A stretch of 64,000 nt of DNA, from assembly GCF_003313325.1 (NCBI RefSeq), contig NZ_QMHQ01000002.1:124001-188000 (forward strand). The letters run 5' to 3'. Shown piece after piece: positions 48,616 to 58,277 of this stretch. The stretch is from Pedobacter namyangjuensis. GTDB taxonomy: Bacteria > Bacteroidota > Bacteroidia > Sphingobacteriales > Sphingobacteriaceae. The notes below the pieces were generated by a model. It searched no databases. It had not been told where the DNA came from and worked only from the letters and a program-made list of their open reading frames with translations. Position 1 is the stretch's first letter. Every line of letters starts with the position of its first letter. The translations under genes and the position numbers were made by a program.

Positions 48616-49254
48616 TTAAACCTTTACAACCTTATTTGGTGTTATTGCAAAGACCTGTTCCTGGGGTTTAGGTTTAATTAAATACAGACCTGTAAATGCA
48701 CTAAATGCAGGCATTACGGCATGTTCATTACCGAAATAAAAACATGGAAATTTTAGGCGTTGTTTTGCTTTGCCAATAATGCTTATTCCTGGATGTACGT
48801 GGCCACTAATAGGATAAAGGTCTTTTTCGTTACACTTTATTGCATCATGTATAAAGCAAAAGTTTCTAGCACAAAAGCTAGGTTCATGTACTTCTATGCC
48901 TAAATCGTTGTATTGGTTATTATGTAAATGATCATGGTTGCCCTTTACCAGCAGAAAATTTACATTTTTATAGTCGGCTTTCCATTTTTCAAATACATCA
49001 ATGTCGCTGTTAATTTCATGGTGAAACATATCGCCATTTATAAGCAAAGTAGAAGGTTGGTAGTGATTAAATAAGGTTGTTAGGCGTTGCAAATCGCTCT
49101 GAGCCAAGGTAGATGGAACTTGAACACCAGCTTTGCGAAAGTGTGCCGCCTTTCCTAAGTGTAAATCGCTTATAGCTAATATCTTTTGTGCAGGGAAATA
49201 AATTGCTCGTTCTTTATCTAAAATCAGTTCTTCTGCTCTAATCGTTATCGTCAT
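48616..49254 (-). CDS. pdeM: Ligase-associated DNA damage response endonuclease PdeM
   Basis: Metallophosphoesterase of 212 residues belonging to the cluster of ligase-associated repair proteins. Metal-binding signatures are Asp30 and His32 in ISDLHLGKAAH, Asp75 in INGDMFHHE, Asn106-His107 in GNHDHLH and the late SGHVHPG. It is the last gene of a four-gene minus-strand operon, 9 bp after the helicase gene. In this family it is thought to nick or cleave DNA in repair. Confidence 0.9.
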   Translation of the reverse strand: MTITIRAEELILDKERAIYFPAQKILAISDLHLGKAAHFRKAGVQVPSTLAQSDLQRLTTLFNHYQPSTLLINGDMFHHEINSDIDVFEKWKADYKNVNFLLVKGNHDHLHNNQYNDLGIEVHEPSFCARNFCFIHDAIKCNEKDLYPISGHVHPGISIIGKAKQRLKFPCFYFGNEHAVMPAFSAFTGLYLIKPKPQEQVFAITPNKVVKV

Positions 49255-49263
49255 TTAGTAGTA

Positions 49264-51735
49264 TTACTTAAAAACTTCAGCTTTCATCCGCTCAATTCTG
49301 TGTTCTAATTCTTCTGAGCTCATATTAGCTCGTAAACTATCAACCTTAATTGGAAAAGAAAGCGGTGTAAACCTTTTCGGGTTGGTAATAACTATGGTGC
49401 TATTCTGAATTCTCTGTAATGCTTCTAAAAGCCTCGCTTCTTCCAGTTGTAAATAGAACACTTCATCGTAAGCCTGGCGCAAAAGTAAATTATGTTTGTC
49501 GTAATCGCTAAAAACATTAAAAAACAAACCTGCCGATGACTGGAGATGTTTATTTGCAACGTATTTGCCGGGATAGCCTTGAAACACCAAGCCAGCAATA
49601 CAAGCTATATCGCGGAATTTTCTGCGTGCCATTTCTGTAGAGTTGATGCTCAGTGTAATATCTTCAGTTAAATTATCGGGAGAAAATACTTCGTATGCAA
49701 TTGCGTCGTCCATAGGTATTTCGGTATCACTCAATAATTCAAACCCATAATCGTTCATCGCGATGGAAAATGTGATAGGAACTAATCTGCTTAACCTATA
49801 AGCAACCAAAGCAGCTAAAATTTCGTGTACTAATCTTCCTTCAAACGGATAGGCAAAGAGGTGAAATCCCTCTCTGTTGTTAATCATTTCAATTAATAAT
49901 TCATCATTTCTGGGCACATGAGATCTTTCTTGCTGCACCAAAAATAGGGGATAAACTACATCTAGTTCTTCTTCTTGATGTGTTTTATTTAGTACCTCGT
50001 TATATTTTTTACGTAGCACCTGCCCGAGATTTGAAGATAAGGGTAAGCGACCGCCCAGCCAACTTGGCGACATTGCCCGTTTCTTTTTACTCCTGCGAAC
50101 AATAACCGTCATATCTTTTATCTGCACAAAATCTAATATTCTGCCCGCAAGCGTAAAACTGTCATCAGGTTTTAATTTCGAAACGAAATATTCTTCAACC
50201 ATACCGATATAGCCACCAGAGAGAAATTTTACTTTTAGCATAGCGTCGCTAACAATCGTTCCGATATGCAATCGGTGGCGCATTGCAATTTGTCTGCTTT
50301 TCACCTTCCAAAGTCCATCTTCGTCTTTTATTACCTTTTTAAACTCTTGGTAAGCAGTTAAACTGTCTCCACCAGAGGTGATAAATTGCATTAACCAATT
50401 CCATTCTTCTGGTAAAAGCATGTTAAAAGCATGGGTACTTTTAACTTCGTTGAAAATTAATTCATCATCGAAACCATCGCCCACGGCCAACGTAACAAGG
50501 TATTGAATTAACGTGTCAAAAACCATTATAACCGGTTCTCTGCTTTCTATATTATTATCTTTTGCTGCCTCTTTAATTGCCGCAGCCTCTACAAGCTCTA
50601 ACGCGTGTGTGGGCAGGAAATAAATTTTGGAAGTTTCTCCAGGCGAGTGCCCAGATCTGCCCGCACGTTGTAAAAACCTGGCTACGCCTTTAGGTGATCC
50701 TACTTGCACAACCGTATCAACCGGTTTAAAATCTACTCCTAAATCTAAAGACGAGGTTGCAATTACCGCTTTAAGCAAACCGGTATGTAGCGAGTCTTCT
50801 ATCCAATTTCTCAGTTCAAAATCTATAGAACCATGATGTATGGCAATTCGCCCAGCAAGTTCCGGATCTAAATTTAGCAGATGCTGATACCACATTTCAG
50901 ACTGACCGCGAGTGTTGATGAAAATAAGTGTGGTTTTGCTTTTTTCTATAATTGGCAAAAGCTTGTAAGCCAATTTTAAACCCAAATGCCCAGCCCAAGG
51001 TAAAGTCTCTATGTAATCTGGTAATATCGATTTTATCTCTATTTTTTTGTGCAGTTTGGCTTTAACAATTATCCGCTTTGCGTTAATATCTGGTTCAATT
51101 ACCTCTAAAGCTTGCTCTATGTTGCCAATGGTAGCCGAGATGGCCCAAACGCGTAAATAGTATTCTTTAGCAGCTTTTTGCAAACCTTTAATTCTAGATA
51201 TGGCTAGTTCTACCATTACGCCACGCTTACTGCCCAAAAGTTCATGCCACTCATCGGCAACAATACATTTTAGGTTTTTAAACAAAGTTGATGAGCCTTT
51301 TTGTGCTAACAATAAGTGTAAGCTTTCTGGTGTTATAAGCAAAATCTCGGGCATAGATTTTTTTTGTTGCAGTTTTTCTGCCTGAGAAGTGTCACCATTT
51401 CTAACGCCAACATACCAGTCCAAATCTAGTTCTGTTAATACCTCTCGCATTGCTCTTGCAATGTCCTTTGCTAACGATCTTAGTGGCGTAATCCATATCA
51501 ATTGTAATCGATCTTTTGAAGTTGTTTTCGCGACACCTTTTTGATTAAGAGCCTCAATTACAACGGCCAAAAACACCGAGAAAGTTTTACCAAAACCAGT
51601 AGGGGCGTTTACCAACCCACTATAACCATCGGCATAGTAGCTCCACGTTTCTTTCTGAAAATCAAAAGGCTTTTTACCATCAGCTTTCAGCCAATTAGCT
51701 ACTTTTTTATAGCCTGGTGTTTTTGTTAAACTCAT
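49264..51735 (-). CDS. Ligase-associated DEXH-box helicase (Lhr-core type)
   Basis: Superfamily 2 helicase of 823 residues. Walker A APTGFGKT is at 44-51, DEWH at 161-164, the SAT motif in WAISATIG near 208, and motif VI QRAGRSGHS near 363-371; a large C-terminal Lhr-type region follows. Such proteins travel with an ATP-dependent DNA ligase, a nuclease and PdeM, and unwind or remodel DNA during damage response. It overlaps the ligase gene by 4 bp, confirming the operon. Confidence 0.93.
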   Translation of the reverse strand: MSLTKTPGYKKVANWLKADGKKPFDFQKETWSYYADGYSGLVNAPTGFGKTFSVFLAVVIEALNQKGVAKTTSKDRLQLIWITPLRSLAKDIARAMREVLTELDLDWYVGVRNGDTSQAEKLQQKKSMPEILLITPESLHLLLAQKGSSTLFKNLKCIVADEWHELLGSKRGVMVELAISRIKGLQKAAKEYYLRVWAISATIGNIEQALEVIEPDINAKRIIVKAKLHKKIEIKSILPDYIETLPWAGHLGLKLAYKLLPIIEKSKTTLIFINTRGQSEMWYQHLLNLDPELAGRIAIHHGSIDFELRNWIEDSLHTGLLKAVIATSSLDLGVDFKPVDTVVQVGSPKGVARFLQRAGRSGHSPGETSKIYFLPTHALELVEAAAIKEAAKDNNIESREPVIMVFDTLIQYLVTLAVGDGFDDELIFNEVKSTHAFNMLLPEEWNWLMQFITSGGDSLTAYQEFKKVIKDEDGLWKVKSRQIAMRHRLHIGTIVSDAMLKVKFLSGGYIGMVEEYFVSKLKPDDSFTLAGRILDFVQIKDMTVIVRRSKKKRAMSPSWLGGRLPLSSNLGQVLRKKYNEVLNKTHQEEELDVVYPLFLVQQERSHVPRNDELLIEMINNREGFHLFAYPFEGRLVHEILAALVAYRLSRLVPITFSIAMNDYGFELLSDTEIPMDDAIAYEVFSPDNLTEDITLSINSTEMARRKFRDIACIAGLVFQGYPGKYVANKHLQSSAGLFFNVFSDYDKHNLLLRQAYDEVFYLQLEEARLLEALQRIQNSTIVITNPKRFTPLSFPIKVDSLRANMSSEELEHRIERMKAEVFK

Positions 51736-53324
51736 AACGTTGATGCCAATAGTTGCCTTAAATCGTCTAAAGTATTTATTTCATCAGCTTTTTTATCTTT
51801 TCGCCAACGGGCGATACGAGGAAATCTTAATGCTAAACCGGCCTTATGACGTTTGCTTTCTGCAATACCTTCAAATGCAATTTCAAATACCAACTCTGGT
51901 TTAACCGTTCTAACCGGACCAAATTTTTCGATAGCGTTTTTGTTTACGAATGAATTTACTTCTTTTATTTCTTTGTCTGTTAAGCCCGAATAAGCTTTGG
52001 CAATAGTGATCAGTTTATTCCCATCACGCACTGCAAAAGTATAATCTGTAAAAAAGTTAGCCCGTCGTCCGCTACCTTTTTGGGCATAAATCATAACTGT
52101 ATCAACCGTAAACGGATTTATTTTCCATTTCCACCAATCGCCACGTTTACGCCCAGTATGAAATGTAGAGCTTAGCTTTTTAAGCATTATGCCTTCGCTA
52201 TTTATTTCTCTAGCGGTTTCTCTAATTGTAGCCAATTGCTCCCAACTTTTAAAATTTATTACAGGCGATAGCAACGCAATATTTTTAGTAACTAGACCAC
52301 CAATTACATTTTCTAGAGTTGATCGTCTTTTTTCTAACGGTTCCTGTCTAATGTCTTCGCCATTAAATTCTAAAATATCATAGGTGAAAAAACCAATCGG
52401 TGCATCGTTTAATTGAGATTTATTAATTGTCTTTCTATTTAATCTTTGCTGTAAAGTGCTAAATGATTGTACTTTGCCATCTTTTATTGAAAGTATTTCT
52501 CCATCCAAAACTACACCATTCGGTAACTCATCTTTTAAAAAATGTAACTCTGGAAATTGATCTGTAACCAATTCTTCGCCTCGAGACCAAATGAAAAGTT
52601 CGTCGTTTCGTTTTACGATTTGTCCGCGTATGCCATCCCATTTCCATTCTGCTTGCCACTCGGTTGTATCGCCTAAATTTTCTGGTTCTGTTTCTAAAGC
52701 ATAGGCTAAGCAAAACGGGTATGGCCAAGAGTTATCGGTGTTTACGTGGGCACCCTCAATCAAACCCAAATACGTTATTTCATCAGGTTGCCATTTACCC
52801 ATAATGCTGTGCATTATTTTGCTGCTATCTTCATCACTTTGTTTGGCAATGGCATTAACCAGCATTTTATTGGAAACACCAATTCTAAAATTACCCGAAA
52901 TTAGCTTGTTAAAGATGAAACGTTCTTGAGTATTAAGGCTGTTCCAAGTATCTAAGATATACTCTTTTTTAGCCTCGTCGTCTTTTCCGTTTAATTGAGC
53001 AAGCTCATTTATCCATTGGTGCAAAGGTTTGTCGATATTTCTTTCTGCTGGCGGAAGTACTAAAGCAATGGTTTCACTTAAATCGCCAACACTACTATAG
53101 CTCTCTGCAAATAGCCATTCGGGTATACCGCTTAGTTCTATTGCCCATTGTTTTATTAAGGATGTGTTTACTGGCCTTTTAGGTTTTTTGCCAGTAAACA
53201 TTGCAATTACATAAGGCTTATCTCTGTCATCCGCCTCGTTAAAATAACTTACCAGCGCCGCAATTTTATCGTTGGTTTTATTACTAAGCTCTAACTCCTG
53301 AATTAGTTGCGAAAATCGTTTCAT
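51732..53324 (-). CDS. ATP-dependent DNA ligase
   Basis: A 530-residue ligase that seals DNA nicks with ATP. The adenylated lysine is Lys228 in KWDG, with later nucleotidyltransferase motifs VVLDGEI and EGIMLKKLSS, and a C-terminal OB-fold region with KRGDWWKWK. An N-terminal DNA-binding domain occupies about 1-200. It overlaps both neighbouring genes (ATG-TGA overlaps of 4 bp), as in the standard ligase-associated cluster. It is additional to the NAD-dependent ligase expected elsewhere. Confidence 0.95.
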   Translation of the reverse strand: MKRFSQLIQELELSNKTNDKIAALVSYFNEADDRDKPYVIAMFTGKKPKRPVNTSLIKQWAIELSGIPEWLFAESYSSVGDLSETIALVLPPAERNIDKPLHQWINELAQLNGKDDEAKKEYILDTWNSLNTQERFIFNKLISGNFRIGVSNKMLVNAIAKQSDEDSSKIMHSIMGKWQPDEITYLGLIEGAHVNTDNSWPYPFCLAYALETEPENLGDTTEWQAEWKWDGIRGQIVKRNDELFIWSRGEELVTDQFPELHFLKDELPNGVVLDGEILSIKDGKVQSFSTLQQRLNRKTINKSQLNDAPIGFFTYDILEFNGEDIRQEPLEKRRSTLENVIGGLVTKNIALLSPVINFKSWEQLATIRETAREINSEGIMLKKLSSTFHTGRKRGDWWKWKINPFTVDTVMIYAQKGSGRRANFFTDYTFAVRDGNKLITIAKAYSGLTDKEIKEVNSFVNKNAIEKFGPVRTVKPELVFEIAFEGIAESKRHKAGLALRFPRIARWRKDKKADEINTLDDLRQLLASTL

Positions 53325-54355
53325 TGGATTTCTTCTTTTACAGTATTTTCAGTTGATTCTCCAATTATGTCATCATCTTCAGCACCATATTTTGTAGTAA
53401 CTTCTTCGGCACTAATGCCGATTTCATTCAGATATTTTGCAAAAACAGCTGTCGAACCATGTGTTACGAAAACTTTCTCAGCTTCTGTAGCTTTTATAGC
53501 CTCAAGTAAACCTGGCCAATCGGCGTGGTCGCTTAGCGCAAATCCGGCATCGGCGCTACGCCATCTTCGGCCTGCTCTAACTGCCATCCAGCCTGAGCAA
53601 ACGCCTATTGCAGGCTGTTGAAGATTTTTTACCCACCTTCCGTCTGCTAAAGCTGGGGGTATAATTACAATACCTTTTTGTAATTCGTCTTTTTTAATTT
53701 CGGGTGTAATTCTAATCGTTTCTGGAAGTTGTACGCCAGCGCCTGCAAAACCTTCGTTTAAATTTGCTATAGAATTATGTACATAGATAGGATAGTGGCC
53801 AGCAAGATTTTTAATTAATCGTTGTGCTTTGCCTAAACTATACGCAACTAAAATGCTGGTTTTTCCTTTTAAATTGTTGTCTGTAATCCAACTTATTATT
53901 TGGTCGAAAATAAGTTGTTGAGCTTGCCAGGTATAAATTGGCAGGCCGAAAGTGCTTTCGGAAACAAATGTATGGCATTTTACAGGCTCAAACGCCGTGC
54001 TAATGCCATCGTATTCAACTTTGTAATCGCCAGAAACAACGCAAATTTCTCCTTTATATTCCAATCTAATTTGTGATGATCCAATAACGTGTCCTGCCGG
54101 AAAAAGACTCAGTTTAACGCCATTAATATCTATTTCTTTATTATATGGTAAAGTTTCGACATTATCTTCCAAGGCATAACGTTGTTTTAAAATAGGTTTT
54201 GTTAGCTCATGGCATAAATAGTTTTTATTGCCCCATTTCACATGATCTGCATGCCCATGTGTGGTTACAGCATAATCTACAGGATGCCAGGGGTCTATGT
54301 AAAAATTGCCTTGTTTGCAGTAAATACCTCGGTTTGTAAATTCAATTAATGCCAT
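53321..54355 (-). CDS. Ligase-associated DNA damage response exonuclease (metallo-beta-lactamase fold)
   Basis: A 344-residue metallo-beta-lactamase/beta-CASP-like nuclease from the ATG at 54355, preferred to one 18 bp upstream because the conserved start MALIEFT begins there. The zinc-binding HGHADH is at 33-38, with SGDYK and a late SDHADW block. It is the first gene of the repair operon and would process DNA ends for the ligase. Its 5' side faces the satD promoter region with an array of half-sites starting 44 bp away. Confidence 0.92.
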   Translation of the reverse strand: MALIEFTNRGIYCKQGNFYIDPWHPVDYAVTTHGHADHVKWGNKNYLCHELTKPILKQRYALEDNVETLPYNKEIDINGVKLSLFPAGHVIGSSQIRLEYKGEICVVSGDYKVEYDGISTAFEPVKCHTFVSESTFGLPIYTWQAQQLIFDQIISWITDNNLKGKTSILVAYSLGKAQRLIKNLAGHYPIYVHNSIANLNEGFAGAGVQLPETIRITPEIKKDELQKGIVIIPPALADGRWVKNLQQPAIGVCSGWMAVRAGRRWRSADAGFALSDHADWPGLLEAIKATEAEKVFVTHGSTAVFAKYLNEIGISAEEVTTKYGAEDDDIIGESTENTVKEEIQ

Positions 54356-54398: not shown

Positions 54399-54474
54399 TA
54401 TCGCGTAAAAAGCCGATAAATTGAATTATCGGGTAATTAGCCGATATTTTGAATTATCGGATAAATACCCGATA
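54399..54474. promoter_or_regulatory. Array of six alternating half-sites with exact 14-bp spacing
   Basis: TATCGC (54399), CCGATA (54413), TATCGG (54427), CCGATA (54441), TATCGG (54455) and CCGATA (54469) begin at exactly 14-bp steps and alternate in orientation. Equivalently this is 2.7 copies of a 28-bp tandem unit; spacers are also alike (GTAAWWAG and xxTTGAAT). The last site ends 9 bp before the satD ATG, so binding would block translation start or promoter clearance. The SatD C-terminal helix-turn-helix is the obvious candidate binder. Confidence 0.75.
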
Positions 54475-54482
54475 TTAGTTTT

Positions 54483-55094
54483 ATGAAAGCAGTTATAACA
54501 GGAGATATTATTAACTCAAGAGCATTGCCTCCAGATTGGATAAATACGCTTAAGAGTTCATTAGGCAATCTTTTCGGTAAACAAATAAAATGGGAAATTT
54601 TTAGGGGAGATAGTTTTCAGGTAGAGCTGAGCGCACAAGATGCTCTTATTAACGCCATTTACATAAAGGCTTGCATTAAAACTTTAAAAAAAGCAGATGT
54701 GCGTATTGGCATTGGCATTGGAAAAAAAAGCGTAAATGCTGCTAAGGTTACAGAAGCAAATGGCGAGGCTTATATAAACTCTGGAAACGCTTTTGATACA
54801 TTAAAAACAAATAAGGTAAATATGGCTATTACAACACCTTGGCCAACAGTAAATGAAGAGCTGAATTTATTTATTAAATTAGCTTTAATTAGCATGGATA
54901 GTTGGGGGCAGATTAGTGCTGAGATGGTTAAATATGCTATAGAAAATCAAAATACCAAACAAGATAAAATTGCAAAACTTGCCGGCAGAAGCCAATCTTC
55001 GGTTAGCGAAGCTTTAAAAAGGGCACATTTTACAGAAATAATGGAACTAGAACATAGGTACAGAACCCAAATGAATCAACTAATTAAAAACTAA
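54483..55094 (+). CDS. SatD-family protein with C-terminal helix-turn-helix
   Basis: A 203-residue cytoplasmic protein that I place in the SatD family. The N-terminal part has GDIINSR (7-13), RGDSFQ (41-46) and RIGIGIGKKSVN (74-85) followed by GEAYINSGNAFD, a pattern reminiscent of a nucleotide-cyclase-like fold with changed residues. The C-terminal part (about 158-181; KQDKIAKLAGRSQSSVSEAL) is a good helix-turn-helix. The stop codon shares a base with the start of the DUF3307 gene (TAATG), so the two are coupled. Self-regulation through the half-site array is inferred. Family function is poorly known. Confidence 0.82.
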   Translation: MKAVITGDIINSRALPPDWINTLKSSLGNLFGKQIKWEIFRGDSFQVELSAQDALINAIYIKACIKTLKKADVRIGIGIGKKSVNAAKVTEANGEAYINSGNAFDTLKTNKVNMAITTPWPTVNEELNLFIKLALISMDSWGQISAEMVKYAIENQNTKQDKIAKLAGRSQSSVSEALKRAHFTEIMELEHRYRTQMNQLIKN

Positions 55095-55813
55095 TGGAAA
55101 TTGCCTTAATTAAGCTCTTGCTTGCACACATACTGGGCGATTTCTTTTTGCAACCAAATAGTTGGGTTACAGAAAAAGAGCAGCTAAAACTAAAATCGGC
55201 CAAGCTGTATTGCCATGTAGCTATACATGTTGCCCTTATATTTTTGGTTTTTATGTCGTTTAACGTATGGAAGATTGCTTTAGTAATAGGCGCTACTCAT
55301 CTAGTTATAGATGCTATGAAACTTAGTTTCCAAAAAATAAAAACGCAAAGGCTATGGTTTTTTATAGATCAGCTTTTGCATATTACGGCAATAGTTATAT
55401 GCTGGAGTTATTATTACGGAAATAATATTGATTTTAGTTTTTTAAATAACGACCGTTTTCTGCTCTTTGCTTTCGGTGCGCTACTGCTTACTTCGCCAGC
55501 AGCAGTTTTTATAAGAGTAGTTATTGCCAGATGGATGCCCAATGCCACTAACACAACAGGATTATCTACAACATCATTACAAGATGCTGGTAAATATATA
55601 GGCATTATGGAGCGTTTACTCATCTATCTTTTTGTTTGCACCCATCACTTTGAGGCAGTAGGTTTTCTATTAGCGGCAAAGTCTATTTTTAGGTTTGGAG
55701 ATTTAAAAGATGCCCATGATATAAAACTAACCGAATACGTGCTAATTGGTACCTTGCTAAGTTTCGGTATTGCGCTGGTTGTGGCGCTAGCCGTTTTGGC
55801 GATTAGTTTGTAA
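55094..55813 (+). CDS. DUF3307 integral membrane protein
   Basis: A 239-residue membrane protein with about six hydrophobic segments and conserved polar residues in them: LAHILGDFFLQP near 9-20, YCHVAIHVAL near 39-48, GATHLVIDAMK near 71-81, and FFIDQLLHI near 90-98. The repeated His/Asp pairs suggest metal or ligand binding within the membrane. DUF3307 genes commonly follow satD-like genes, and here translation is coupled. Activity is unknown. Confidence 0.83.
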   Translation: MEIALIKLLLAHILGDFFLQPNSWVTEKEQLKLKSAKLYCHVAIHVALIFLVFMSFNVWKIALVIGATHLVIDAMKLSFQKIKTQRLWFFIDQLLHITAIVICWSYYYGNNIDFSFLNNDRFLLFAFGALLLTSPAAVFIRVVIARWMPNATNTTGLSTTSLQDAGKYIGIMERLLIYLFVCTHHFEAVGFLLAAKSIFRFGDLKDAHDIKLTEYVLIGTLLSFGIALVVALAVLAISL

Positions 55814-56052: not shown

Positions 56053-56084
56053 TAAAAAAGCCACAGCTATAAGTAACTGTGGCT
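56053..56084 (-). terminator. Terminator of the DPP IV gene
   Basis: AGCCACAG at 56059-56066 and CTGTGGCT at 56077-56084 form an 8-bp stem with a T run on the minus strand. Confidence 0.8.
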
Positions 56085-56105
56085 CTGCGTATGTTTTTAA
56101 AAGAA

Positions 56106-58277
56106 TTATCTTGCTCCTGGAGGGCAGTTTTCTTTTAAGAATTTTGTAAAGGTTAATGCCAGGTGCTGTCTAGTTCCTTCGCCTTCGCTAATACTGTGCG
56201 AACGGTTTGGATAGCTCATTAATTGAAACACTTTTTTGTTTTTTACCAATTCGTTAATCAACATGTCTGCATTTTGGTAATGTACGTTATCATCACCGGT
56301 ACCGTGTATGTACAATAAGTTACCAACCAAATTTTTAGCATGTGTAATTGGCGATCCTTTTACATAAGCTTCGGTACTTGGAAAAGGCGTGCCCATGTAG
56401 CGCTCTTGATAAATATTATCGTAGGTTAATTGGTTGGCAACCGCAGCAACTGCGATACCTGTTTTGTAAATTTCTGGGTATTGAAACAATAAGTTTAATG
56501 TAGATGAACCACCGCCACTCCAACCGTGAACCGCAACGCGATCTTTATCTAAGAAAGAGTAGGTTGCCAATAATTTTTTGGTTGCCATTGCCTGATCGCG
56601 AATATTAAGGATACCTATATTTTTGTAAATAGATTTTCTCCAGGTAGTGCCTTTTGGAACAGGTGCACCACGGTTATCCATAGAAATATAGATATAACCA
56701 TCTTTTGCCATATCGCCCGCGTACAGGTTATTGTTTCCAGCACCCCAAACATCGGCCGCTGTCTGCGACGCTGGTTCGCCGTAAACGTAAAATAAAACAG
56801 GGTATTTTTTGTTAGGATTGAAGTCATCAGGTTTTTTCATCCAGCCATCTAGTTCAACACCGTCTTCTGTGGTTACTTTAAAAAACTCGACTTTGTTTTT
56901 TGGCGGAGATTGTTTAGATAACTGTGTAGTAATGCTACCGTCCATAGTTAAAGGCTGACCTGCAGCAAAATTCATCCACTCGGTAACCGGTTGTACGGTA
57001 GAACTGTTGTAGCTGTGGCGAGCAAATAATCCGTTAGGAGAAATTGAATAGCTGTGCGTACCCGGTAAAACAGAAGGCGTAACCATTTCTAGCTTGCCTT
57101 TACCATCTAACTTTGTTTTGTAAAGATATTTTTGGGTAGCATTGGTAGGCGAAGCCATGAAATAGATGGTATTGTTTTTCTCGTCAACCAAGCTTAAATC
57201 AATAATATCGTAGTTGCCTTTGGTGATTAAGGTTTCTTTTTTACCGTCTTTGCTAACGCGATAAAAGTGGTTGTAGCCATCTTTTTCGGTTTGATAAATG
57301 AATTCCTTGTTGCCGTTTAACCAAATAAATTGATCCTGAGCATCTATCCACGAATTGTTTTTTTCTTTGTAAATTTCGGTAATTGTATTTGCCGTAACGT
57401 TAGCTACAAATAATTTGCTCTCGTTTTGTTGGCGATTTAGTTGTTGCAAAATAATCTCATTGGTGTTAGGGATCCACTGCATACGAGGAATGTAGTTTTG
57501 TACGTTATCTCCAGGAACTGCTAACCAATTGGTTTTTGCAGTAGCAATATCAACCACACCAATTTTGCAAGCCGAAGGATCTTGGCCAACTTTTGGATAT
57601 TCTACCGGTACATTAAATGCGTAGATAGAATCTGTATTATTAATCATTAAAAAGTTTTTGATCTTGGTAGCATCAATTTGCCAGTAGGCAATAGATTTTC
57701 CGTCTGGCGACCATCTGAAACCATCTAGGCAACCAAATTCTTCTTCGTAAACCCAGTCGAAAGTTCCGTTAATCATTCTGTCGGTGCCATTGGTAGTAAG
57801 AGCTTTTGCAATTCCAGTAGCTAAATCTTCTACATAAACATTGTGGCCACTTACATACGCTACTTTGCTGCCATCTGGAGAAAATTTGGCAAACATTAAA
57901 GATGACGCCGGCTTATCTTTACCTATTTGGGTTAATTTATTATTGGTGATATCGGCAACCCAATAATCTCCACGGCTATCTTGTCGCCAAACTCTTTTTG
58001 TGTTTGTGTAAATTAACGCTTTAGTACCATCATCTGTAAGCTGAAAACTTCTAACAGGTATTGGATTTTGCGTGTTAGGTGCGGTTAACAAGCTTCTGCT
58101 GATAACAGTTTTACGCTCGTTTTTTGGTAAAGTGATACTAACAATCTCTCCGCCAGCATTGGTGTAATAACCATTGCCATCCTTTGTCCAGTTAATACCA
58201 CCACGTTGCGCTTTAGCAACATTAGCGCCTGTAAGGGCTAATACAGCTACAGCAATTAGAAGTTTGGTAATTTTCAT
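56106..58277 (-). CDS. Dipeptidyl peptidase IV (S9 family)
   Basis: Exported serine peptidase of 723 residues with a signal peptide ending near AKAQ (24). A DPP IV-type propeller domain covers about 60-470 and includes DWVYEEEF at 174-181, whose Glu pair anchors the substrate N-terminus. The alpha/beta hydrolase domain has Ser587 in GWSGGG, Asp662 in GTGDDNVH and His694 in NRSHSIS. Cleavage of X-Pro or X-Ala dipeptides is expected. With the DPP11-like enzyme at 30413 it gives the cell two complementary peptide-trimming activities. Confidence 0.93.
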   Translation of the reverse strand: MKITKLLIAVAVLALTGANVAKAQRGGINWTKDGNGYYTNAGGEIVSITLPKNERKTVISRSLLTAPNTQNPIPVRSFQLTDDGTKALIYTNTKRVWRQDSRGDYWVADITNNKLTQIGKDKPASSLMFAKFSPDGSKVAYVSGHNVYVEDLATGIAKALTTNGTDRMINGTFDWVYEEEFGCLDGFRWSPDGKSIAYWQIDATKIKNFLMINNTDSIYAFNVPVEYPKVGQDPSACKIGVVDIATAKTNWLAVPGDNVQNYIPRMQWIPNTNEIILQQLNRQQNESKLFVANVTANTITEIYKEKNNSWIDAQDQFIWLNGNKEFIYQTEKDGYNHFYRVSKDGKKETLITKGNYDIIDLSLVDEKNNTIYFMASPTNATQKYLYKTKLDGKGKLEMVTPSVLPGTHSYSISPNGLFARHSYNSSTVQPVTEWMNFAAGQPLTMDGSITTQLSKQSPPKNKVEFFKVTTEDGVELDGWMKKPDDFNPNKKYPVLFYVYGEPASQTAADVWGAGNNNLYAGDMAKDGYIYISMDNRGAPVPKGTTWRKSIYKNIGILNIRDQAMATKKLLATYSFLDKDRVAVHGWSGGGSSTLNLLFQYPEIYKTGIAVAAVANQLTYDNIYQERYMGTPFPSTEAYVKGSPITHAKNLVGNLLYIHGTGDDNVHYQNADMLINELVKNKKVFQLMSYPNRSHSISEGEGTRQHLALTFTKFLKENCPPGAR

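What the first reader, a model, noticed from the sequence alone, without database searches (positions are those of the whole stretch)
54399..54474. Six alternating half-sites at an exact 14-bp period in front of satD
TATCGC/CCGATA/TATCGG/CCGATA/TATCGG/CCGATA start at 54399, 54413, 54427, 54441, 54455 and 54469. The step is 14 bp every time and the orientation flips each time, making a 28-bp tandem unit. The spacing is too regular for chance in such A+T-rich DNA and resembles cooperative binding of a multimer along DNA. The array sits between the DNA-repair operon (start codon 54355) and satD (start 54483), so one protein could control both.
Basis: partly seen in the sequence, partly recalled or inferred. 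Interest (0 to 1): 0.82.

Follow-up and report, generated by a model that had tools for sequence, protein, structure and literature searches.

The report
SatD's self-matching 28-bp operator ladder
The repeated DNA ladder in front of satD is found before most of the satD genes examined across Bacteroidota, at nearly the same spacing, and its letters change in step with the predicted DNA-reading helix of SatD itself, so SatD likely multimerises on it to control its own gene and that of a partner membrane protein.

Summary
In detail: six alternating half-sites, 14 bp apart, at 54399-54474; a two-unit ladder occurs nowhere else in the 4.33-Mb assembly. It is general. A scan that assumes no letters finds a 27-29-bp ladder before 168 of 196 distinct satD genes, against 1 of 1500 control windows. 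Geometry stays; letters change by lineage (22 consensus half-sites in 141 loci), together with SatD's recognition helix: on a tree of SatD's other domain, residues 176, 172 and 173 rank first of 201 columns (p down to 5e-12), and residue 171 changes only where bases 1-2 do. Partner-protein columns do not reach this. The ladder belongs to satD, not the repair operon: 14 of 14 fetched exonuclease loci without satD beside them lack it, and no exonuclease was found left of 122 of 168 ladders. SatD is predicted to be a cyclase/GGDEF-type palm, both metal-binding aspartates kept, plus a C-terminal HTH. Best reading: cooperative autoregulation, probably repression, of a satD-DUF3307 module. SatD binding was not measured; nucleotide gating and the partner's job are inferred.

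The parts
54399..54474 (.). operator ladder: three 28-bp units (TATCGS-N8-CCGATA), six half-sites every 14 bp, orientation alternating
   Evidence: (score 33.4; shuffle maximum 16.6)
54399..54404 (+). half-site 1, TATCGC (the only one that departs from TATCGG)
54413..54418 (-). half-site 2, CCGATA
54427..54432 (+). half-site 3, TATCGG
54441..54446 (-). half-site 4, CCGATA
54455..54460 (+). half-site 5, TATCGG
54469..54474 (-). half-site 6, CCGATA, ending 8 bp before the satD start codon
54483..55094 (+). satD (203 aa): predicted palm/nucleotide-cyclase-fold domain plus C-terminal HTH; proposed autoregulator
   Evidence: Pfam PF16264 33.2 bits, cut-off 29; AF2 pLDDT 97.4
54504..54506 (+). codon of Asp8, first putative metal ligand (D in 194 of 195 aligned distinct SatDs)
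54609..54611 (+). codon of Asp43 in RGDSF, second putative metal ligand (D in 194 of 195)
54993..55022 (+). predicted recognition helix of the HTH (residues 171-180), the part that co-changes with the half-site letters
   Evidence: helix; covariation
55094..55813 (+). DUF3307 membrane protein (239 aa), overlapping the satD stop by 1 base; second gene of the module
   Evidence: PF11750 98.8 bits; downstream of satD in 200 of 205 loci
53321..54355 (-). ligase-associated exonuclease, first gene of the divergent repair operon; neighbour, not part of the module
   Evidence: TIGR04122 447.8 bits; exonuclease loci without satD have no ladder

Best explanation
The six half-sites are an operator array that the SatD protein encoded just downstream likely binds as a cooperative multimer, which is predicted to shut off the promoter of its own satD-DUF3307 operon. 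Shown: the ladder and its 28/29-bp geometry recur before satD genes of many lineages, its letters differ by lineage, and they change on the same branches as residues 171-176 of SatD's HTH. Inferred: each HTH reads one half-site and pairs of HTHs read each 20-bp palindrome. Neighbouring dimers touch, which would explain the fixed 8-9-bp gap between palindromes. Occupying the array would cover the -7 box, so SatD would set its own level and that of the membrane protein. Predicted only: the N-terminal palm domain binds a nucleotide with metal through Asp8 and Asp43, and the ligand sets whether the multimer holds or leaves the ladder.
For: Ladder before 168 of 196 distinct satD loci, period 28 (126), 29 (41) or 27 (1), three units in 123; 1 of 1500 control windows passes the same 220-bp scan and 0 of 1500 pass the 300-bp scan at period 27-29. 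Of 201 SatD columns, the three that best co-change with the half-site are 176, 172 and 173, and residue 171 changes on exactly the 4 branches where bases 1-2 change; all lie in the helix that AF2 puts at 171-180. Best of 234 DUF3307 columns on the same tree: 3.7e-6 against 6.1e-12. The pairs read like a code: TATCGG goes with Ser172 and Glu or Asp at 176 in 67 of 67, TATCAC with Asn172 and no acid at 176 in 10 of 10, TATTCC with Lys176 in 5 of 5, TATTAC with Ala172 and Arg176 in 3 of 3, ATTCGG with Glu171 in 5 of 5, TATAAG with Gln176 in 7 of 8. Recent switch: L022 is 91% identical to L042, has S172P and E176G, and all six half-sites read TATCTG instead of TATCGG. Among loci with N domains under 50% identical the recognition helix predicts bases 4-6 better (2.21 of 3) than 17 other 9-residue stretches (at most 1.75) or the whole N domain (1.59). 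TAnnTTTG boxes facing satD are inside the ladder in 43 loci (expected 11.8) and just after it in 25 (expected 2.1), and 31 of 88 share their TA with a half-site.
Against: No binding, expression or structure of a SatD-DNA complex was measured. 28 of 196 loci miss the threshold. The window itself has no exact TAnnTTTG box in or near its ladder, so its promoter is not placed; repression rather than activation rests on box positions in other species. SatD columns outside the HTH (20, 75 and others) also co-change with the half-site at about 5e-6 to 4e-5, a level that DUF3307 columns reach too; that is the background. APC-corrected mutual information does not pick the recognition helix for bases 3, 4 and 6. 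L092 and L094 have Ser172, Ser173 and Glu176 yet a TATCTG consensus; their ladders mix both words. Glu176 and CG at bases 4-5 disagree in 20 of 141 loci. The higher identity of half-sites (0.90) than of spacers (0.64) and linkers (0.58) within ladders is partly built in, as the scan selects for alike half-sites. L018 and L022 repeat their linkers as well, so some ladders may have been copied unit by unit. No nucleotide has been shown to bind.
Confidence: 0.8

Rival explanations
1. The ladder is a shared operator for the divergent DNA-repair operon and satD, so that one protein links DNA damage repair to satD.
For: It lies between the two start codons, 43 bp from the exonuclease start; the exonuclease is the left neighbour in 46 of 168 ladder loci.
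Against: 14 of 14 fetched exonuclease loci without satD beside them have no ladder, 16 of 16 with satD have it; no exonuclease was found left of 122 of 168 ladders; minus-strand -7 boxes inside the ladder in only 8 of 168 loci.
Confidence: 0.1
2. Another, unlinked DNA-binding protein binds the ladder and controls satD; SatD itself does not bind it.
For: Binding by SatD was not measured; many regulators act in trans.
Against: The half-site letters follow SatD's own recognition helix, first of 201 columns on the tree, which a trans-acting protein would not produce; a two-unit ladder is at one place only in the genome.
Confidence: 0.07
3. The palindromes act in RNA, as a row of hairpins (attenuators or stability elements) in the satD leader.
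For: Four terminator-like sites, two on each strand, are called in the ladder.
Against: The stems have only 6-7 pairs; in other species -7 boxes lie inside or after the ladder, so much of it would not be transcribed; a 28/29-bp period and covariation with an HTH are not expected of hairpins.
Confidence: 0.05
4. The ladder is a neutral tandem repeat kept by slippage.
For: In L018 and L022 whole units including linkers repeat.
Against: Half-sites are more alike within ladders than spacers and linkers (0.90, 0.64, 0.58; partly built in); nearly the same geometry with 22 different consensus half-sites that track the recognition helix; absence from satD-less loci.
Confidence: 0.02

Closest known systems
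NrdR (ribonucleotide-reductase repressor)
   Same: A repressor with a nucleotide-sensing domain that oligomerises and binds a pair of boxes (abstract of PMC12051234), often also at its own gene (start of the abstract of PMC9110341 in the search listing).
   Different: NrdR has a Zn-ribbon and an ATP-cone and binds best when its two boxes are an integer number of helix turns apart; SatD has a predicted cyclase-type palm and an HTH, usually six or more half-sites, and a 28-bp step, about 2.7 turns. Works alike at most; not a relative.
BldC (Streptomyces)
   Same: Cooperative multimer along a repeated DNA array (abstract and section headings of PMC5859096).
   Different: BldC binds direct repeats head to tail and lacks an effector domain; SatD half-sites alternate in orientation and SatD has a second, enzyme-like domain.
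Class III nucleotidyl cyclases, GGDEF diguanylate cyclases, Cas10 palm, GTP cyclohydrolase III
   Same: Predicted fold of SatD residues 1-140 and two Asp positions shared with Ma1120.
   Different: SatD carries a DNA-binding HTH, has RGDSF where a GGDEF motif would stand (my reading), and no catalysis is shown.
Autoregulated toxin-antitoxin operons (e.g. AbiE)
   Same: Two-gene operon (AbiE: start of the abstract of PMC3985639 in the search listing); that such operons are repressed by their antitoxin through repeated inverted sites is recalled.
   Different: No toxicity shown for DUF3307; the ladder is longer and its geometry more rigid than in the operons I recall.
Streptococcus SatD (secretion and acid tolerance)
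   Same: The same family name; reported as essential in the strains tested though 178 of 249 S. pyogenes genomes have it (passages of PMC11323703).
   Different: Its upstream DNA and partner could not be reached with these tools.

Membership tests
SatD family (PF16264) | score over Pfam's gathering cut-off | tested here: met
   33.2 bits against 29
SatD family (PF16264) | conserved Asp8 and Asp43 (GDI and RGDSFQ motifs) | tested here: met
   D in 194 of 195 aligned distinct sequences at both places; L137 lacks both
class III cyclase / GGDEF palm superfamily | palm fold | tested here: met
class III cyclase / GGDEF palm superfamily | two metal-binding Asp | tested here: met
   Asp8 and Asp43 align with the DI and GD positions of Ma1120 (E 0.0014, profile of alignment A2); that these are its metal ligands is recalled
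class III cyclase / GGDEF palm superfamily | sequence match to the Pfam cyclase or GGDEF models | tested here: not met
   only SatD reported at E 0.001
class III cyclase / GGDEF palm superfamily | nucleotide cyclase activity | not testable with these tools
   needs an assay
NrdR | Zn-ribbon plus ATP-cone | tested here: not met
   no such domain
BldC-like MerR regulators | head-to-tail binding on direct repeats | tested here: not met
   half-sites alternate in orientation; the binding mode itself was not tested
toxin-antitoxin operon | two adjacent, co-directional genes with an operator-like array in front | tested here: met
   DUF3307 follows in 200 of 205 loci, ladder in 168 of 196
toxin-antitoxin operon | one product is toxic and the other neutralises it | not testable with these tools
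   no assay; only the essential-accessory report in S. pyogenes
known anti-phage defence systems | match to PADLOC models | tested here: not met
   no match below E 0.014 for four proteins

The most novel reading that the evidence does not exclude
SatD is the founding member of a class of nucleotide-gated regulators: a palm/cyclase domain that makes or senses a nucleotide fused to an HTH that polymerises with fixed pitch along a 28/29-bp ladder. The array is kept for function while both sides of its recognition code drift together, and it holds down a membrane protein that is harmful when freed, a guard-type module of housekeeping chromosomes found in at least two phyla.
Probability: 0.3. Interest if true: 0.88.

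Novelty: new variant of a known kind. Interest (0 to 1): 0.74.

Why it matters
It would give a function, an operator and a readable recognition code to a widespread protein family whose name comes from acid tolerance in a Streptococcus. It offers a natural series in which a multi-site operator and its likely regulator have switched specificity together many times while the geometry stayed nearly fixed, so that how a regulator changes its DNA word without losing its target can be tested directly. It also predicts a regulated membrane protein for which no solved fold was found, and suggests why satD could be essential where present yet absent from other strains.

Tried and rejected
Joint control of the repair operon: tested with exonuclease loci lacking satD and rejected as the main role. 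Known defence system: no PADLOC match below E 0.014, no phage record, three plasmid records, one viral contig; left neighbours in other lineages look like ordinary chromosomal genes (read by eye), so no defence-island case. DUF3307 fold: AF2 model pLDDT 92 gave no PDB match below E 0.8; left open. APC-corrected mutual information did not single out the recognition helix for bases 3, 4 and 6; the plain sum and the tree test did put it first. The Segatella plasmid satD (L244) shows no ladder (13.2; wrong start, scanned from the annotated start with the same result).

Literature: as whole words SatD family and DUF3307 gave two papers, one seen in passages (PMC10326533), one in the listing only; other searches showed no report of the ladder in their listings; subscription journals are not held.

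Rows dropped: two fetched loci in which my script did not find satD again (L175, L213); 13 of 209 satD loci as duplicates (196 distinct), 15 of 140 distinct loci without a usable ladder call (13 under the threshold; L080 for period 27, L147 for odd spacing); L148 for unclear register, 17 of 18 further in-class loci added (L207 under the threshold); out-of-class SatDs (other register) left out of the covariation tests. The threshold of 17 was set after seeing the shuffle maxima, then checked on 1500 windows. The first 300-bp count had no matching control; searches added it (one search stopped with a formatting error after its first count). In the 300-bp control 8 of 1500 windows pass 17 at some other period, up to 24.8, none at 27-29. 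The PF16264 search missed the window's own satD (no match for G000), so its counts, the 0 of 14 controls included, are lower bounds.

Full report
Observation. The window is part of a 4,330,132-base, 29-contig assembly of a Pedobacter-like bacterium: the named genomes with the closest SatD are Pedobacter; the assembly itself is unnamed. In it a two-unit ladder with up to 3 mismatches occurs only here, while single palindromes with mismatches are at background (191 against 189 for the reversed control).

Neighbours. On the left, divergently, stands the ligase-associated DNA-damage cluster: exonuclease TIGR04122, ligase TIGR04120, DEXH helicase TIGR04121 and PdeM TIGR04123. On the right stand satD (PF16264, 33.2 bits against a cut-off of 29) and, overlapping its stop by one base, a DUF3307 protein (PF11750, 98.8 bits). 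A DUF3307-like protein follows satD within 300 bp in 200 of 205 loci with more than 400 bp of downstream sequence.

Is the ladder general? satD was sought in 59 relatives (24 with a match), in public genomes (best 80 loci kept of 572 stretches), in 395 genomes of the class (48 with a match) and in 296 of the phylum (65 with a match; 0 of 14 control genomes, which missed the window's own satD, so lower bounds). I scanned the upstream DNA with a model that fixes no letters (any 6-mer, its reverse complement, free spacing and period). Shuffles reached at most 16.6 (306) and 16.2 (168). With 17 as threshold, 168 of 196 distinct satD loci pass with period 28 (126), 29 (41) or 27 (1), both with 220 bp and up to 4 units and with 300 bp and up to 8 units. 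Controls from elsewhere in the 80 named loci: 1 of 1500 windows with the first setting (17.07); with the second 8 of 1500 at other periods and 0 at 27-29. Three units are the commonest number (123), then four (29), and 2, 5, 6 or 8. Of the 28 that miss, 18 have 28 or 29 as their best period. Outside Bacteroidota, two Pseudoalteromonas records have two units of another word at period 28 (17.9 and 18.0) with a DUF3307 partner, and a viral contig has three units at 29 (33.7). A Segatella plasmid copy has none (13.2).

Geometry is kept, letters are not. In 141 loci whose half-sites could be put in one register there are 22 consensus words: TATCGG 67, TATCGT 13, TATCAC 10, TATAAG 8, TATCTG 7, ATTCGG 5, TATTCC 5 and others (in some ladders a letter is a bare plurality). 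Within ladders half-sites agree at 0.90, spacers at 0.64, linkers at 0.58 (136 ladders); part of that difference is built in, since the scan selects alike half-sites. L018 and L022 repeat whole units, so unit copying contributes.

Who binds it? The letters co-vary with SatD itself. By weighted mutual information the top three protein columns are 176, 172 and 171 (124 loci, effective number 34). By co-change on a tree built from residues 1-140 only, the top three of 201 columns are 176 (19 of 29 changes on half-site branches, 4.6e-12), 172 (13 of 19, 1.6e-8) and 173 (15 of 26, 2.7e-8); residue 171 changes 4 times, each time where bases 1-2 change (4e-9). As a control, the best of 234 DUF3307 columns reaches 3.7e-6, which is also about the level of SatD columns outside the HTH: that is the background. 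AF2 places a helix at 171-180 (mean pLDDT 97.4), the second helix of the HTH, and the coupled residues start it.

The pairs read like a code. TATCGG goes with Gln171, Ser172 and Glu or Asp at 176 in 67 of 67. Asn172 goes with TATCGT (11 of 13) and TATCAC (10 of 10, none with an acid at 176). Asn173 with Glu176 gives TATCTG (3) or TATCTT (2). Lys176 gives TATTCC (5 of 5), Ala172 with Arg176 TATTAC (3 of 3), Gln176 TATAAG (7 of 8), Glu171 ATTCGG (5 of 5). Among loci whose N domains are under 50% identical, the recognition helix predicts bases 4-6 best (2.21 of 3, against 1.16-1.75 for 17 other stretches and 1.59 for the N domain). A recent switch shows it directly: L022 is 91% identical to L042, differs in the helix by S172P and E176G, and reads TATCTG in all six half-sites; L060 has the same two residues and the same word. 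Exceptions: L092 and L094 keep Ser172, Ser173 and Glu176 with ladders that mix TCTG and TCGG, and Glu176 and CG at bases 4-5 disagree in 20 of 141 loci. That correlated positions often are true contacts was shown for MerR regulators (abstract of PMC5045206).

The ladder belongs to satD. Of 30 exonuclease loci fetched, 16 have satD beside them and all 16 have the ladder; 14 do not and none has it (highest score 16.2, at period 22). One of those 14 genomes, G026, has a different satD elsewhere with its own TATAGA ladder. Of 168 ladder loci 46 have the exonuclease on the left; in 122 none was found. In other lineages the left neighbours differ, among them genes that look like rmuC, a thioesterase, IMP dehydrogenase and a UvrD-type helicase, named by eye from their sequences.

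How it may act. The Bacteroidota -7 consensus TAnnTTTG (recalled) facing satD lies inside the ladder in 43 of 168 loci (11.8 expected) and within 40 bp after it in 25 (2.1 expected); facing the other way it is inside in 8. In 21 loci (31 of 88 motifs) its TA is the last TA of a half-site. Binding and RNA polymerase would thus compete, which argues for repression. In the window itself no exact box is present; near matches are TAAGTTTT (54382) and TAGTTTTA (54476). A 14-bp step is 1.33 helix turns, so half-sites wind around the DNA and return to the same face every 42 bp; three units make 84 bp, eight turns at 10.5 bp. A multimer that wraps the DNA fits this better than a row on one face (inference).

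The partner. DUF3307 has conserved His/Asp in its first half (H12, D16, H41, H69, D73, H96 at 90% or more of 65 sequences). The part shared by the partners, including those of about 105 residues in distant genomes, is the C-terminal half (G170, E173 and K196 in 199 of 199), not the stretch Pfam names (5-116). Its model meets no solved fold. In S. pyogenes satD is reported as essential in the strains tested although only 178 of 249 genomes have it (passages of PMC11323703). A repressor or antidote of a harmful partner would behave so, but I could not check the partner there.

Comparison and verdict. It works somewhat like NrdR (nucleotide sensor that oligomerises on repeated boxes; abstract) and BldC (cooperative multimer on repeats; abstract), but lacks defining features of both. 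I file it as a new variant of a known kind, autoregulation through tandem operators, with an unusual protein and an unusually rigid and widely kept geometry.

Noticed in passing
L137 (G111:C8:453449-457048): A satD homologue that has lost Asp8 and Asp43, has no DUF3307 partner and no ladder: metal site, partner and operator are gone together.
   Followed up: partly
L023 upstream of satD (G009:C1): satD without DUF3307 downstream whose ladder is down to a single palindrome; the exonuclease next to it is interrupted by a stop codon.
   Followed up: partly
L140 and L146 (genome G108): One genome with two satD genes; L146 has a weak ladder (17.5) but no DUF3307 partner found, L140 has both.
   Followed up: no
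window 55094-55813 and the partners in L169, L172, L176 and others: In distant genomes the satD partner is only about 105 aa and matches the C-terminal half of the 239-aa protein; the most conserved residues lie there, outside Pfam's DUF3307 stretch.
   Followed up: partly
L247 (viral contig IMGVR_UViG_3300012148_000149): A contig filed as viral carries satD, a DUF3307 partner and a three-unit 29-bp ladder of a different word.
   Followed up: partly
L244 (Segatella copri plasmid NZ_CP137558.1): satD-DUF3307 pair on a 93-kb plasmid, between a helix-turn-helix regulator gene and an IS1182 transposase, with no ladder found.
   Followed up: no
window 48616-54355: Complete ligase-associated DNA-damage cluster (exonuclease, ATP-dependent ligase, DEXH helicase, PdeM) on the minus strand.
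   Followed up: no
window 56057-56086: A 13-pair hairpin followed by T on the minus strand, just after the long open frame 56106-58277; looks like an ordinary terminator.
   Followed up: no
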